From assembly GCF_900168265.1 (NCBI RefSeq), contig NZ_FVZF01000001.1, positions 1 through 64,000 on the forward strand: a DNA stretch of 64,000 nt, in the 5' to 3' direction. Shown here one piece after another: positions 2,988-10,425 of the stretch. The notes under the pieces were generated by a model that was not told where the DNA came from, ran no database searches, and saw only the letters and a program-made list of their open reading frames with translations. The DNA is from Salegentibacter salarius (lineage in GTDB: Bacteria; Bacteroidota; Bacteroidia; Flavobacteriales; Flavobacteriaceae). Position 1 is the first letter of the stretch; every line of letters begins with the position of its first letter. The position numbers and the translations under genes were made by a program.

Positions 2988-5900
2988 TCATTCCAAAACT
3001 ACGCCAACTCCAACCTTACCCAGCAAATACGGGTTATGATCAATAATGAGAATATCATTGGCTTTGCCCAGTTTTTTGAGTATAGCATATAATAGATCTA
3101 TATCGGCATAATGAAGTCCTGTGCTGGGTTCGTCTAAAATATAAAGCACATCGTTAGCTTTAGCCTGTAGCCAATTCAACAATAATAATCGTTGTTTCTC
3201 CCCGGAAGAAAGTGATTGCACCGGCTGGTCTAATCTAAGATGCGCCAACCCGATTTCCTCTAAATGATCCAGGAAGTCCTGGGTTTTAGGATTTACAGTA
3301 AGCTTATTCAGCCATTCTTTTAATTCTATGATATTTAGGGCAAGTACTTCTGCTATATTTTTCTTTTCAACAGAATGAGCCAATATATGCGCCTGATAGC
3401 GTTGCCCTTTACATACTTCACATTTTTCAATGGCATTGGCTGCAATATCAAGACTGGTCTCCACATAGCCTTTTCCTTTACAGTTTGGGCACTGACTGCT
3501 CTTAGTTTTATAGGAGAATTCTTTAGCTTTTAGGCCGGTTTCAGCTGAAAATATTTTACTTACGTCTTTTAAAATATCCAGGTAGGAAATCAATAAAGTG
3601 GCCGCGTGAGTATTAAGTTTTTTAGGCTCAAAATAATGCACGCCTGAATAATTTTTTGGGAAATTTATGCTCTTACAATTCACCGGCTGTCCGGTCTCAA
3701 TGCTGGGCACCAGGATATCTTTCACCAGGGTAGTTTTCCCAATACCAGATTTTCCTGTTAGTGCAGTAATGCCCCCAATAGGCAGGGATAATGAATCCCT
3801 TACAAAAGTATGCCTGGCTAGGTTACTAAAACTAATGTACTTTTTCCCTTCTTTAAGTTTTATCGTTTGGGTAGGTGCTTTCAAAAATGGGTGGCAATCG
3901 GCTTGTTGCAATAAACCTTCGGTGCTGCCTTCATAAGTGATATAGCCACCTAAATTGCCGGCTTTAGGTCCAATTTGTACTATATGATCTGCCTCATGTA
4001 TGATGGCCTTGTTGTGTTCAATGACCACAACCGTATTTCCTTTTTCAATAAGCTCTTTTAAGATTTGAATCAGATCCGGAATATTATCATTAGACAAACC
4101 AGCTGAAGGTTCATCTAACAAATAGGTGATGCCTTTAAGCGGACTATTTAATTGTTTGATAAGCTCTACCCTTTGATTTTCTCCACCTGAAAGTGTAGGC
4201 GATTTTCGGTTTAGTTGCAGGTAATCAATATGTAATTGCTTCGCTCTAAGAATAGTGTTAATTAAATGGGGTTCAATCTTGGTGAGTAGTTTTCCATCTA
4301 CATCTTTCCTAGTGGCATTTTCTGCTAGCCATAGATCAAGCTCTTTAAAATCCATTGATTTAATTTCGTGAATGGATTTTCCCGCTATTTCAAAAGCTAA
4401 TCGTTCGGGTTTTAATCCACTTCCCTCACAATGGCTACATTCTCTATGAGAAAAAAGGGTAGTTAGCTGACTTATATTTTTATTCTTTCGGGTCTTGAAA
4501 TATTCGTCTTGCAAATAGTGGTAGAGGCCTTCCCATTTCATACTTAAGGCTTGCTTACCTTCCCTTGTCTTAGTTTTGTATAGCCAATTGGCTTTCCATA
4601 CCTTTTCACCTGCTCCGTTCAGTAATATTTCTTTGTGCGAATTGCTCAGTTCTTCAAAAGGGGTTTCCAGAGTAAAACCATATTCTTTACCAACTTCTTT
4701 TAAGATCGCCATATGCTTCCCTGCCGGATTGCCGTAATACCCTATTACTTTATTGTGTGCGAAAAGTCCCTGAGCAATGCTTTTATTTTCATCCAGAACA
4801 AGTTTGTTGAGATCGGGTAGCAGTTCTTCGCCAATGCCTTCACAAACCGCACATTTTCCTAATTCGTGATTATTAGAAAAATGACTGGCTGATAATTCTT
4901 GTCCTCCATACTGCGCCTTTCTGGAAAAGGCAAAGCGTAAAATTTTATCAATTCCCGTTTGCTTTGCAATATCTGAACGTTGAGAATAATTCTTTTGCTT
5001 TCTGGTGATACAAATAGTAGGAGTAAGTCCTTCAATATGATTAACCTCTAACTGAAAATTCACGCCCACTCTTGACTGCTGATAACTTGAAAACTGTTTG
5101 GTCATTTCTTGTAGCCCAAAACCGTGCAGCGTATCAATTACCAATGAAGATTTCCCGGAACCGGAAATTCCAGTGACTACCGTTAATTGATGCTTGGGCA
5201 AATCTAAGTTTAGATCTTTTAGAGAATGCGTACGCGCACCCTGAATGGAAATTTTATCCCTTTGCTGTAGGGGCTCTTCTTTCACTTTAATAGGTTGAAC
5301 TTCCAGCGCATTGTCCACTAAGGCATCACATTGAGATTGAAAAAGGGAATGATTTTCAAAACAGATAATGCCTGCAGTTTGTTGCTTGAGTTGGTGCAAT
5401 GCATCCAGCAACTGACTCACATTTTTCTGATGCAATCCTATACTGGGTTCTTCAAGTAAGAGGAGCGTCTTTTTTGATTTTTTGGTGAAATGTTTAGTGA
5501 GTTTAATACGCTGCGCCTCGCCACCTGATAAGGTATTGGAGGGCTGTCCCAGTTTGATATAGCCAAGTCCTAATTTCAGCATTAAAGACAGAATTTCTTT
5601 GATTTTCTTTTCCTCGGAAAAGAAATCATAAGCTTCTTCAATACTTAGATTATAGAGATCTGCAATATTCTTTTCATTCCAATGAACACGAAGTACTTCC
5701 GGCTTAAAACGTTTGCGATTACAGGTAGGACAAACCTGGTTGATACTACCAAGTGCACTCATAGAGAGGGTGATTACGCCAGCCCCTTCACAGGCTTCAC
5801 ATCTACCGGTTTTGTTATTAAATGAAAAGGCTCCTTTGGATAAATTCGATGTTTTCGCTTCAGGAGTTTTTGCTAGTAAATCCCTTATTTTATCTGCTAA

Positions 5901-7484
5901 GCCTGTATATGTAGCCGGGTTACTTCTAGGAGTTTTACCTATAGGTTGATCGTTTACAGTAAGAAGATTTAGATTTTCCTCCTCAGAAAGTTGGGTAATG
6001 CTTTCAATAATTTGAGGCGTTTTGCGGCTCACAACTGTTAGCTCCATGTTGCCTGGTTGAAAGGCTTCCACCGAGACCTTTTTTGGTTGGTTTTTAGATG
6101 ATTTATCATTTCCGGCTTCTTTCAATGCCTTTAAAGTTGGGCTACTTAGTTCTTTTGCATTTAGAAAATTATTGATGGGACCGTTAAAAACCACTTCGCC
6201 GCCGTGTATCCCCGCTTCGGGGCCTAGTTCTACTATCCAATCTGCCGACTTTATAAAATCTAAGTCGTGCTCCACCACCATAACCGTATTTCCCCGGCGA
6301 ATGAGTCGGTTTAGAATATGAAGCAGATATTTTTGATAATCTTTAGACAAACCGATGGAAGGTTCATCGAATACATATAAAATACCTTGCAGCTTACTAT
6401 TTACCTGGTTAATGAGTTTGATTCTTTGCCCATCACCAGAGGAAATCTCCATACTTGGTGTGCTTAGCCGGTATTCTTCCATACCCAGCCTAATCAAGTC
6501 ATATAATTGAGTGCAGATCTTATCTACCAAAACTTGTTCTCCGGTTGTGAATTGCTGAAACTTCAGTTTTTCATATAATTCGCTTAAGGAAAGCTCCATC
6601 CATTCTTGAAAATTAAGTCCTTTCCACTTATATTTTAAATGTTCTGCTTTAATGCGCGCACCTTTACAATCAGGGCAAATTTTGGAGCTGGCAAATTTTA
6701 AGATATTAGGATTTCTATCACGTCTTAAAATATCCTGCATAATAGGAAGCATTCCTTTATAGAATCCTTCTTCACGAGGCTTGGCTTTAATTCCTTTCCA
6801 CCTAAGCCTAGACTCCAGGCCGTGTTTACCAAAAAATACTTTGAGGCGATCACTTCCGTTTAAAACCACGTCTTGTTGCTCTTCTGTGAGTTCCTTCCAG
6901 GGTATATCTACATTAAAACCGTGCGTCTCACACACTTTATTTAATTCCTCTACGGTTATTTGGGAATAGACGATATAGCCATTGGGCAGGGTAGTGGTAA
7001 TCGCCCCTTCTCTAAGCGTCTTATTTTTATCTCCTACTAATTTGTTAAGGTCAATATATTCTGCTTCTCCAATACCACGACATACCTCGCAGGCTCCTCT
7101 AGGGTGATTAAAAGAAAATAGCGACTTACTCATAGTTTCAGCAGCCGAATAGCGGGCAAATAAAATTCTGAAGACAGAAGCAAGCTCAGAGAGCGTTCCA
7201 AAAGTAGTATTGATAGACTGGAAGCGCTTCGATTGTTCTACCTTAATTACCGGGGGAAGGTCTTTTATATCATCTACTTCAGCAGTAGGGATTAACTGAC
7301 TGTTTTGTTGGTTGTATGCAGGGAGACTCTCTAAAAAATATCGGTAACCCTCATTCGCGATAACACCCATTGCAAGGGAAGATTTCCCCGAACCAGATAG
7401 ACCAGTCACTACAATCAATTGATTTTCAGGAATACTTAAATCAATATTTTTGAGATTATTTTGATGGGCATTAATTATGTGCAT
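2988..7484 (-). CDS. Giant UvrA-like ATPase: two fused UvrA2-type units, four ABC modules
   Basis: 1498 residues, against about 940 for UvrA. Unit 1 (about 1-745) and unit 2 (about 755-1498) are each laid out like a compact UvrA-class protein. Walker A motifs are GLSGSGKS (28-35), GISGSGKSS (near 772) and GKSGIGKTT (near 1241). Signature motifs are SSGDGQRIKL (near 346, degenerate), LSGGEAQRIKL (near 649), LSGGENQRVEL (near 1096) and LSSGEKQRLLL (near 1422). Module 2 keeps the UvrA landmark PIGKTPRSNPATYTG and its Q/signature loops, but the Walker A place near 480 reads LTVVSRKTPQ, with no P-loop. CxxC zinc pairs are present in all four modules. UvrA proteins recognise damaged DNA; shorter UvrA2/DrrC relatives are linked to tolerance of DNA-binding drugs. 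The name uvrA is not given, since a normal uvrA is expected elsewhere. Confidence 0.85.
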   Translation of the reverse strand: MHIINAHQNNLKNIDLSIPENQLIVVTGLSGSGKSSLAMGVIANEGYRYFLESLPAYNQQNSQLIPTAEVDDIKDLPPVIKVEQSKRFQSINTTFGTLSELASVFRILFARYSAAETMSKSLFSFNHPRGACEVCRGIGEAEYIDLNKLVGDKNKTLREGAITTTLPNGYIVYSQITVEELNKVCETHGFNVDIPWKELTEEQQDVVLNGSDRLKVFFGKHGLESRLRWKGIKAKPREEGFYKGMLPIMQDILRRDRNPNILKFASSKICPDCKGARIKAEHLKYKWKGLNFQEWMELSLSELYEKLKFQQFTTGEQVLVDKICTQLYDLIRLGMEEYRLSTPSMEISSGDGQRIKLINQVNSKLQGILYVFDEPSIGLSKDYQKYLLHILNRLIRRGNTVMVVEHDLDFIKSADWIVELGPEAGIHGGEVVFNGPINNFLNAKELSSPTLKALKEAGNDKSSKNQPKKVSVEAFQPGNMELTVVSRKTPQIIESITQLSEEENLNLLTVNDQPIGKTPRSNPATYTGLADKIRDLLAKTPEAKTSNLSKGAFSFNNKTGRCEACEGAGVITLSMSALGSINQVCPTCNRKRFKPEVLRVHWNEKNIADLYNLSIEEAYDFFSEEKKIKEILSLMLKLGLGYIKLGQPSNTLSGGEAQRIKLTKHFTKKSKKTLLLLEEPSIGLHQKNVSQLLDALHQLKQQTAGIICFENHSLFQSQCDALVDNALEVQPIKVKEEPLQQRDKISIQGARTHSLKDLNLDLPKHQLTVVTGISGSGKSSLVIDTLHGFGLQEMTKQFSSYQQSRVGVNFQLEVNHIEGLTPTICITRKQKNYSQRSDIAKQTGIDKILRFAFSRKAQYGGQELSASHFSNNHELGKCAVCEGIGEELLPDLNKLVLDENKSIAQGLFAHNKVIGYYGNPAGKHMAILKEVGKEYGFTLETPFEELSNSHKEILLNGAGEKVWKANWLYKTKTREGKQALSMKWEGLYHYLQDEYFKTRKNKNISQLTTLFSHRECSHCEGSGLKPERLAFEIAGKSIHEIKSMDFKELDLWLAENATRKDVDGKLLTKIEPHLINTILRAKQLHIDYLQLNRKSPTLSGGENQRVELIKQLNSPLKGITYLLDEPSAGLSNDNIPDLIQILKELIEKGNTVVVIEHNKAIIHEADHIVQIGPKAGNLGGYITYEGSTEGLLQQADCHPFLKAPTQTIKLKEGKKYISFSNLARHTFVRDSLSLPIGGITALTGKSGIGKTTLVKDILVPSIETGQPVNCKSINFPKNYSGVHYFEPKKLNTHAATLLISYLDILKDVSKIFSAETGLKAKEFSYKTKSSQCPNCKGKGYVETSLDIAANAIEKCEVCKGQRYQAHILAHSVEKKNIAEVLALNIIELKEWLNKLTVNPKTQDFLDHLEEIGLAHLRLDQPVQSLSSGEKQRLLLLNWLQAKANDVLYILDEPSTGLHYADIDLLYAILKKLGKANDILIIDHNPYLLGKVGVGVVLE

Positions 7485-7666
7485 AAAGGCTTACTGTTTC
7501 TCTTTTAAAAAAAATAAATATAGAAAGATATTAAGGCTTAGAAGGGGTTTTTCGGGAAAACAAAGCATAAAATTTCTCTTGTGTCCAGATGAATAAAACA
7601 ATGGTTGATTAACGATAGTTTATCGGTGTAAGACAATGTTTGTTATATATTTATATAAAAAAGAAA

Positions 7667-7849
7667 ATGTTCGGATTATTCATGAAAAAGTCAGAAGTTG
7701 AAAAGCTGGAAGTGAAATACAAAAAGCTTCTGGAGGAAGCTCATCAACTCTCCACTACTAATCGTAGTAAAAGTGATGAAAAAATGTATGAAGCAAATGA
7801 GGTTTTAAAACAAATCGATCTGATTAAAAAATCGGAAGAAGCTAAATAA
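7667..7849 (+). CDS. Lacal_2735 family small protein
   Basis: 60 residues starting MFGLFMKKSEVEKLEVKYKK, then LLEEAHQLSTTNRSKSDEKM, ending in a charged helix. This is the pattern of the short Lacal_2735 family of Flavobacteria: MFGLF start, basic and acidic amphipathic helix, LS-(T/K)-NR-KSDEK core. The whole protein is predicted helical and soluble. An in-frame TTG at 7640 would add MLYIYIKKK; the ATG at 7667 is preferred because the family starts there. It is followed by a strong hairpin terminator. Function unknown. Confidence 0.8.
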   Translation: MFGLFMKKSEVEKLEVKYKKLLEEAHQLSTTNRSKSDEKMYEANEVLKQIDLIKKSEEAK

Positions 7850-9677: not shown

Positions 9678-10202
9678 TTAAACTTCCTGGGCTTCTGTTT
9701 CTTCTGAAACTTCTTCCTTTTGAGTTTCATCTGAATCAAGAACATTAAATTTTTCTAATTGTTCTTCCTCACCGGTAAAATATGGGAATACATCCAGAAT
9801 TGGAGATTCTGTAATAGATGGAATATTATAATCGCCCATAGTTTCTTCCATCGCCGTGGTAGTATTCTCGAAAGCCTCTTTTACATCGTTGGCCTGAACA
9901 AGCAAGTAAATATTTGTCTTTTTTTCCTTTCCGCTTTCCTCATCCATAGCCACCAGGGAAACCTTTGATTTAAACCAACGATCGGAATTCTCAAAAGGAT
10001 GAACTTCTGAAAAATTCGCAACTTTTATATTCATTATTCTAAAGTCTTCACTAGTATAAGCTGTCATTTCCTTAGTGATTCTCGCTTCGGCTTCTGTGAA
10101 AGATACTGCATCAAGTAGGTAGGTATCTGTAGTCATTTTCTGCTCGCCTGTTTCGTGTGTTTTTTTGTATTTCACCTTACATTCAAACCAAGTTACGCTC
10201 AT
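9678..10202 (-). CDS. DUF4494 domain protein
   Basis: 174 residues from the ATG at 10202. The product starts MSVTWFECKVKYKKTHETGE and has the DUF4494 layout: two similar halves, each with an F-x-(S/C)-KV strand and a long beta hairpin (WFECKVKYKK near 5, WFKSKVSLVAMD near 72), each followed by an 'EA' helix (FTEAEARI; VKEAFENTT). The family is restricted to Bacteroidetes and has no known function. The frame extends upstream to 10256, adding 18 residues, but these are unlike the family, so the internal ATG is chosen. The last 25 residues are acidic and low in complexity. Monocistronic, with its own terminator. Confidence 0.85.
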   Translation of the reverse strand: MSVTWFECKVKYKKTHETGEQKMTTDTYLLDAVSFTEAEARITKEMTAYTSEDFRIMNIKVANFSEVHPFENSDRWFKSKVSLVAMDEESGKEKKTNIYLLVQANDVKEAFENTTTAMEETMGDYNIPSITESPILDVFPYFTGEEEQLEKFNVLDSDETQKEEVSEETEAQEV

Positions 10203-10425
10203 ATCTTTATTTTTTAGGGAGTCAAAAATAGGGTTTATAACGAGTCTCGAGGACAAAACAAGAGATAGATATTCACAATTTTCTACTTGCTACTTAACCA
10301 GATAATTAGTTTCAAAAAACAGGATTTTTATTCAATTAAAATTAAAATCTATAGTAATTATAAATGAATTTTTAATGTTTTCTTTTACTATCTTTATCGG
10401 GTTAATTATTAAATAATCAAAGATT

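What the first reader, a model, noticed from the sequence alone, without database searches (positions are those of the whole stretch)
2988..7484. Fused double UvrA-like protein with a P-loop missing from module 2
Four ABC modules in one 1498-residue chain amount to a covalent UvrA-type dimer. Modules 1, 3 and 4 keep Walker A, but module 2 has lost it while keeping LSGGEAQR and the PRSNPATYTG landmark. This asymmetry predicts one dead nucleotide site in unit 1. Short UvrA relatives are linked to protection from DNA-binding natural products, so a self-contained dimer could be a resistance or repair machine that does not need UvrB.
Basis: partly seen in the sequence, partly recalled or inferred. 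Interest (0 to 1): 0.7.

Follow-up and report, generated by a model that had tools for sequence, protein, structure and literature searches.

The report
Lopsided double UvrA-like DNA sensor
A bacterium carries two UvrA-type DNA-damage sensors fused into one protein, in which one of four ATP-using sites has decayed while the part expected to touch DNA in the same half has stayed nearly frozen, which suggests a specialised sensor for one particular kind of DNA lesion or DNA-bound compound.

Summary
ORF 2988-7484(-) is a 1498-aa protein of two UvrA-type units (aa 1-736, 737-1498). Module 2 has no Walker A. Neither unit has a UvrB-binding domain; both canonical UvrAs of the genome do.

The dead site can be named: the distal site of unit 1 (ATP-binding II + signature I). 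Its signature, Walker B and H-loop are altered as well. Proximal site 1 and both unit-2 sites look intact across 43 family proteins. Relatives show graded states: intact (L117); signature, Walker B and mostly H-loop changed but Walker A kept; Walker A lysine lost (two members, a parallel loss); and the window's clade, without a P-loop.

Unexpectedly, the insertion domain of unit 1, which contacts DNA in UvrA, is the slowest-evolving part of that unit (0.47x its core). In the class I UvrAs sampled it is faster than the core (2.8x).

The gene is patchy in Bacteroidota, has no conserved operon and is under purifying selection. Best reading: an asymmetric three-site ABC sensor, working like class II UvrA (Ecm16) without UvrB, tuned to one lesion or ligand. 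Function is inferred; whether the halves arose by duplication in place is unresolved.

The parts
2988..7484 (-). Tandem UvrA-like protein, 1498 aa
5277..7484 (-). Unit 1 (aa 1-736): UvrA-type unit without UvrB-binding domain
7377..7403 (-). Walker A, module 1 (GLSGSGKSS, aa 28-36), intact; proximal site 1
6678..7079 (-). Insertion domain of unit 1 (aa 136-269), slowest-evolving part of the unit
6423..6446 (-). Altered ABC signature of module 1 (ISSGDGQR, aa 347-354); half of distal site 1
6348..6383 (-). Walker B, module 1 (ILYVFDEPSIGL, aa 368-379), intact
5979..6041 (-). Eroded P-loop region of module 2 (LTVVSRKTPQII..., aa 482-502); strand-turn-helix without GxxGxGK
5901..5939 (-). GKTPRSNPATYTG landmark of module 2 (aa 516-528), kept
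5721..5801 (-). Zn3-type module of unit 1 (CxxC at 562 and 585)
5508..5531 (-). Intact ABC signature of module 2 (LSGGEAQR, aa 652-659); completes proximal site 1
5430..5465 (-). Walker B of module 2 with Asp to Glu (LLLLEEPSIGLH, aa 674-685)
2991..5276 (-). Unit 2 (aa 737-1498): UvrA-type unit without UvrB-binding domain, both ATP sites complete by sequence
5145..5171 (-). Walker A, module 3 (GISGSGKSS, aa 772-780)
4440..4841 (-). Insertion domain of unit 2 (aa 882-1015), average rate
4170..4193 (-). ABC signature of module 3 (LSGGENQR, aa 1098-1105)
3729..3755 (-). Walker A, module 4 (GKSGIGKTT, aa 1244-1252)
3411..3491 (-). Zn3-type module of unit 2 (CxxC at 1332 and 1355)
3189..3212 (-). 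ABC signature of module 4 (LSSGEKQR, aa 1425-1432)
3111..3146 (-). Walker B, module 4 (LYILDEPSTGLH, aa 1447-1458)

Best explanation
A tandem UvrA-type DNA sensor that works as an asymmetric pair inside one chain. SHOWN (by sequence and prediction): two UvrA-fold units; no UvrB-binding domain; three complete composite ATP sites; the fourth (distal site of unit 1: ATP-binding II + signature I) altered in all its motifs, with graded states in relatives; the insertion domain of unit 1 unusually slow-evolving. INFERRED: the two units face each other as a UvrA dimer does and clamp one DNA duplex. Unit 1 is the recognition half, with a fixed-specificity insertion domain and one proximal ATP site. 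Unit 2 is the motor half, with both sites. ATP turnover in unit 2 drives scanning and release, while unit 1 reads one defined bulky lesion or DNA-bound compound. Without UvrB contact the protein then acts as proposed for class II UvrA of the Ecm16 type: ATP-driven remodelling or clearance of the ligand from DNA, or exposing the lesion to another repair route. The ligand is unknown.
For: UvrA matches for both units; the 39 best Foldseek hits of each unit are all UvrA, UvrA2 or Ecm16. PF17760 absent, with positive control in two UvrAs of the same genome. Distal = ATP-binding II + signature I (PMC6486640 passages). In 43 family proteins (window + 42): signature I altered 43/43, Walker A2 motif lysine absent 38/43, Walker B2 Asp lost 42/43, H-loop His not at its place 42/43; against signature II kept 43/43 (one with a change at its sixth position), Walker A1, A3 and signature 3 43/43, Walker A4 and signature 4 41/41 where present. 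Intact site in the relative L117. Insertion domain/core speed: unit 1 0.47, unit 2 0.95; class I 2.8, class II 1.56, single-unit ~840-aa proteins 0.85. Slowest of five parts of unit 1 in each of two clades. Ecm16's insertion domain is needed for DNA binding and is matched to its drug. dN/dS 0.07-0.10. Patchy: 15 of 397 family genomes and 2 of 395 phylum genomes, own genome counted in both.
Against: No functional data. Pairing of the units into one clamp is not modelled (the chain exceeds the 1200-aa limit). ISSGD keeps the Ser and second Gly of LSGGE, so in the window's clade signature I is altered rather than destroyed. In 29 of 36 rows of that clade a His stands one residue further on (ENH), so the H-loop may be displaced rather than lost; all 36 keep K-[ST] in the P-loop turn. 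ATP-binding I of unit 1 is nearly as slow as the insertion domain (0.69 against 0.50), and the comparator sets are small (5-7 rows). A frozen insertion domain could equally contact a protein partner. Residues 222-236 of it are low confidence in the model. The role of UvrA2 itself is described as unclear (PMC5128194 passages).
Confidence: 0.55

Rival explanations
1. An accessory nucleotide-excision-repair sensor that still hands lesions to the genome's UvrB through other surfaces (signature II) or through the canonical UvrAs.
For: UvrB is present once and two canonical UvrAs are present. Signature II, which also contributes to the UvrB interface in UvrA (PMC6486640 passages), is the most intact part of module 2.
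Against: Both units lack the UvrB-binding domain. The gene is missing from most relatives although 39 of 40 sampled genomes have some UvrA match; I did not check UvrB in those relatives.
Confidence: 0.2
2. A sensor of foreign or modified DNA (phage, plasmid) rather than of damage: the frozen insertion domain would read a fixed feature of invading DNA.
For: Patchy distribution; matches to defence ATPase models in PADLOC (mad3, 256 bits for the whole protein, 4 stretches).
Against: ABC modules give such matches in general: NCBIfam transporter models score 100-184 bits too. No conserved neighbour in 41 flanks of up to 6 kb (I did not scan those flanks for defence genes). No effector domain among the families listed at E <= 0.001 for either unit.
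Confidence: 0.1
3. A decaying paralogue on its way to a pseudogene; the missing Walker A is simple degeneration.
For: The N-terminal part of module 2 (with some linker) evolves fastest and its dN/dS is 0.16-0.26 in the three pairs where it could be computed. The relative L117 has one in-frame stop.
Against: Full-length open frame in 13 of 14 congeners. Whole-gene dN/dS 0.07-0.10. Loss is confined to one composite site while the other three and the insertion domain are conserved.
Confidence: 0.03
4. Two units that do not pair with each other: the chain dimerises with a second copy, giving a four-unit, six-ATP-site assembly.
For: UvrA units dimerise, and the linker between the units is short in the window's clade (about 20 aa by eye).
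Against: None tested; the geometry was not modelled.
Confidence: 0.2

Closest known systems
Class II UvrA / UvrA2 (D. radiodurans UvrA2, Ecm16; DrrC is named in PMC10192343)
   Same: Each unit is about 740-760 aa, UvrA fold, two zinc modules (Zn2 and Zn3 types), insertion domain, no UvrB-binding domain. Foldseek TM-score by target length 0.80-0.81 to Ecm16 for each unit.
   Different: Two units in one chain; units 1 and 2 form clades of their own beside the class II clade sampled; one distal site dead; insertion domain of unit 1 slower, not faster, than its core.
Class I UvrA of nucleotide excision repair
   Same: Order of ABC modules, PRSNPATYTG landmark, zinc modules, fold.
   Different: No UvrB-binding domain; tandem; asymmetric ATP sites.
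Double-length UvrA model NF001885/PRK00635 (1809 positions; its chlamydial origin is recalled)
   Same: A UvrA model of double length.
   Different: The window protein scores 680 bits against a cut-off of 3054 and lacks UvrB-binding domains. No chlamydial sequence was compared.
ABC proteins with one degenerate nucleotide site (heterodimeric ABC transporters; recalled)
   Same: One composite site lost, its partner kept.
   Different: Here it occurs in a four-module soluble DNA sensor, one site of four.

Membership tests
Class I UvrA (NER) | UvrA fold with two ABC modules per unit and Zn3 landmark | tested here: met
Class I UvrA (NER) | UvrB-binding domain (PF17760) | tested here: not met
   not found in either unit, found in both control UvrAs of the genome
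Class I UvrA (NER) | Two complete ATP sites per protomer | tested here: not met
   unit 1: distal site broken by sequence; unit 2: both complete
Class II UvrA (UvrA2/Ecm16 type) | UvrA unit without UvrB-binding domain and Zn1 | tested here: met
   two CxxC pairs of zinc modules per unit
Class II UvrA (UvrA2/Ecm16 type) | Groups with UvrA2 in a tree | tested here: inconclusive
   7 class II rows form a clade (100/100) that excludes both units; deep order among the five clades is unsupported, so a sister position is open
Class II UvrA (UvrA2/Ecm16 type) | Tolerance to DNA-binding drugs or damage without UvrB | not testable with these tools
   needs a deletion strain
Double-length UvrA (NF001885) | Score above the curated cut-off | tested here: not met
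   680 of 3054 bits
Anti-phage defence ATPases (PADLOC mad3, others) | Specific family match with system neighbours | tested here: inconclusive
   matches look generic to ABC modules; the glycosyltransferase and DUF4494 neighbours have no PADLOC match; other flanks were not scanned with PADLOC

The most novel reading that the evidence does not exclude
A UvrA lineage in which duplication or fusion allowed division of labour: one half became a dedicated reader with a frozen insertion domain that recognises a single chemically defined DNA lesion or ligand, and gave up its distal, damage-discriminating ATPase site, while the other half stayed the motor. It would be a natural three-site UvrA, fixed in specificity where other UvrAs are broad.
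Probability: 0.35. Interest if true: 0.75.

Novelty: new variant of a known kind. Interest (0 to 1): 0.58.

Why it matters
How UvrA's four ATP sites divide the work of scanning, discrimination and release has been studied with point mutants (PMC6486640, PMC7835731, passages). Here nature has removed one distal site, apparently in parallel in related lineages, while keeping the other three, and a relative with the intact site exists (L117). So the role of that site can be compared across natural proteins. The covalent link breaks the symmetry of the UvrA dimer and would let each half be studied apart. The frozen insertion domain reverses the pattern of the class I UvrAs sampled and points to one conserved ligand, which a binding screen could look for.

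Tried and rejected
Neighbourhood: flanks (up to 6 kb, shorter at contig ends) of 40 loci plus the window gave no shared operon. The most frequent neighbour family, with the window's DUF4494 protein, is in 8 of 41 (Salegentibacter, Mesonia, Gramella, a Marixanthomonas MAG); two others are in 7 of 41, one of them the glycosyltransferase. Distances and strands vary. Nothing functional follows.

Phylogeny of the halves: the first tree held two rows, L090 and L091, that I had read in a wrong frame; both were dropped. For one search the Leuconostoc row (long branch) was dropped and the Pantoea and Bradyrhizobium rows, first labelled class II, were relabelled single-unit ~840-aa. Each half is a clade, but the order of the deep branches is unsupported. 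Holding units 1 and 2 together costs 1.67 log units, AU p 0.42 (rows). Duplication in place versus fusion of two lineages is undecided.

Phage and plasmid collections: every matching record is below 60% identity (51 phage and 882 plasmid records), and no tandem relative is among the rows listed (20, 10 and 60). With a distant member as query, 61 of 295 class genomes match at E <= 1e-150. Six are tandem (G799, G1022, G978, G945, G1035 and the window's own). I judged the other 55 to be single UvrA genes by match coordinates and frame length; four of them (G550, G536, G578, G764) were checked.

Literature: 9 searches. Among the titles and abstract beginnings listed (several searches listed only the top rows of many) I saw no tandem UvrA without UvrB-binding domains. 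The library lacks most subscription papers. The one 'fused UvrA' passage I looked at was a fluorescent-protein fusion.
Full report
1. What is there. The minus-strand ORF 2988-7484 encodes 1498 aa. NCBIfam names it uvrA (TIGR00630, 1076 bits, cut-off 730), but it is far below the cut-off of the double-length model NF001885 (680 of 3054). Sequence search against solved structures finds UvrA, UvrA2 and Ecm16 first. The chain holds two UvrA units: aa 1-736 and 737-1498. Each was modelled with its orthologues (28 and 27 rows; mean pLDDT 83.8 and 85.9). For each model the 39 best Foldseek hits are UvrA, UvrA2 or Ecm16 chains.

2. UvrB. Pfam's UvrA interaction domain PF17760 is not found in either unit at E <= 0.001, while the UvrA DNA-binding domain PF17755 is present in each. 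As positive control, the two other UvrA genes of the same genome (947 and 930 aa) have both domains. The genome has one UvrB over the cut-off. Each unit keeps two pairs of CxxC: 132/270 and 562/585 in unit 1, 878/1016 and 1332/1355 in unit 2, which correspond to Zn2 and Zn3. [quoted passage not shown] coli against echinomycin with or without UvrB (PMC10192343: abstract, part 1 of Results, Discussion).

3. Which site is dead. In UvrA the proximal site is ATP-binding I + signature II and the distal site is ATP-binding II + signature I (PMC6486640, passages). I aligned 43 proteins, the window's and 42 others (11 duplicates dropped), and tabulated 16 motifs; two rows end before module 4. In unit 1 all parts of the distal site are altered: Walker A2 motif lysine absent in 38 of 43, Walker B2 Asp lost in 42 of 43, His not at the H-loop position in 42 of 43, signature I different from LSGGE in 43 of 43. 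Signature II reads LSGGEAQR in 42 of 43 and LSGGEGQR in one. Walker A1, Walker A3 and signature 3 are intact in 43 of 43, Walker A4 and signature 4 in 41 of 41. So module 1's signature and module 2's Walker motifs, which face each other, decayed together. Three cautions. In the window's clade (36 rows) signature I is ISSGD (ITSGD in one), which keeps the serine and second glycine; in the 7 distant rows it is LRASE or similar. In 29 of the 36 a His stands one residue later (ENH). All 36 keep K-[ST] in the turn that replaced the P-loop.

4. States in relatives. Three tandem groups exist. In the tree of second units the outermost (family coded f121 by the tool: L117, L121) lies outside the other nine rows (99/95). 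In L117 the unit-1 distal site is intact: LSGGEAQR, GVSGAGKSS, LDEPTTGLH, EHH; L117 has one in-frame stop and was read as two pieces. L121 is partial: Walker A2 and His intact, Walker B2 Asp already Ser. The ~1590-aa group (Crocinitomix, Saprospiraceae and others; 7 of the 43 rows, plus L118-L120, of which L119 appears to be the same gene as L075) has lost signature I and Walker B2 Asp in all and His in all but L066; it keeps Walker A2 except in L064 (GSGIRP) and L066 (GSGTSS). The window's clade has no GxxGxGK left. L064 and L066 sit inside the ~1590-aa group (support 90/89 in unit 1, 100/99 in unit 2), so on this tree the lysine was lost at least twice; they show a parallel loss, not a step on the way to the window's clade.

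5. The frozen insertion domain. [quoted passage not shown] Relative speed of insertion domain to core, by partitioned likelihood on fixed trees: unit 1, 0.525/1.106 = 0.47; unit 2, 0.956/1.009 = 0.95 (24 rows each by the parameter count). Comparators: class I 2.183/0.782 = 2.8 (6 rows, UvrB-binding columns left out); class II 1.435/0.918 = 1.56 (7 rows); single-unit ~840-aa proteins 0.874/1.023 = 0.85 (5 rows). Cut into five parts, unit 1 has its slowest part in the insertion domain, in the window's clade alone (14 rows, 0.59; next ATP-binding I, 0.71) and in the distant clade alone (9 rows, 0.45; next 0.55). The start of module 2, which includes some linker, is fastest in both (2.9 and 2.2). 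In unit 2 the insertion domain is average (1.04) and ATP-binding is slowest (0.47). Pairwise, 18 of 18 distant unit-1 pairs have higher identity in the insertion domain (mean 68%) than in the core (41%), against 16 of 45 for unit 2, 0 of 6 class I, 1 of 19 class II and 0 of 3 single-unit; the 18 pairs share one deep split and are not independent. Many invariant residues lie in aa 219-258 (GKHxxESRLxWxGxKAKPREE...DRN), and residues 222-236 are low confidence in the model, as a mobile contact loop could be.

6. Distribution and context. The full-length protein is in 13 of 14 other congeners and in none of 10 other family members or 15 order members in one sample. Larger samples at E <= 1e-80: 15 of 397 genomes of the family and 2 of 395 of the phylum, counting the window's own. 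With a distant member as query, 6 of 295 class genomes are tandem, own included. A contig scan gave 40 loci with titles such as Salegentibacter, Mesonia, Gramella, Christiangramia and Zunongwangia. Relatives at 92-93% identity place the window in or next to Salegentibacter (inference). No shared operon was found. Whole-gene dN/dS against four orthologues is 0.07-0.10.

7. Origin of the halves. In trees with class I, class II and single-unit ~840-aa UvrAs, units 1 and 2 are each a supported clade, and so are the three other groups; the order among the five is unresolved. A tree with the halves as sisters is not rejected (AU p 0.42).

8. Mechanism. Shown: architecture, decay of one composite site, missing UvrB domain, selective freezing of insertion domain 1. 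Inferred: intramolecular clamp, recognition half and motor half, UvrB-independent action on one ligand. [quoted passage not shown]). A unit that has lost the distal site but frozen its DNA-contacting domain fits a unit whose specificity is built in rather than kinetically proofread; that step is my interpretation.

9. Other papers. Passages only were seen of PMC3025350 (class I and class II UvrA and the insertion domain), PMC518961 (second UvrA homologue of Xanthomonas), PMC5128194 (class II UvrA, role unclear) and PMC10729960.

10. Novelty. Tandem UvrA, class II UvrA and degenerate ABC sites are each known (the chlamydial tandem UvrA and degenerate ABC transporters from recall). I saw no report of their combination in what nine searches listed; the library lacks most subscription papers. 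I rate it a new variant of a known kind.

Noticed in passing
window 7640-7849 (+): Small ORF matching DUF6435 (PF20027) between the tandem UvrA gene and the glycosyltransferase gene, on the opposite strand.
   Followed up: no
window 9678-10256 (-): DUF4494 protein; its family is the most frequent neighbour of the tandem UvrA (8 of 41 flanks).
   Followed up: partly
L113 5926-8430, L114 6573-9098, L115 6886-9483: Single-unit UvrA-like proteins of 834-865 aa in other Bacteroidia that group with Pantoea and Bradyrhizobium plasmid proteins as a clade separate from class I and class II; module-1 signature LSPGELQR in these three.
   Followed up: partly
   Followed up: no
L078 3640-6483 and L079 4329-7121: The same genome carries two canonical UvrA genes, both with UvrB-binding domain, so three UvrA-type genes in a 3.3-Mb genome.
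   Followed up: partly
G011 (no locus), relative of window 2988-7484: One congener (G011, 4.7 Mb, 99% complete) lacks the gene while 13 others have it, which suggests loss or replacement within the genus.
   Followed up: no
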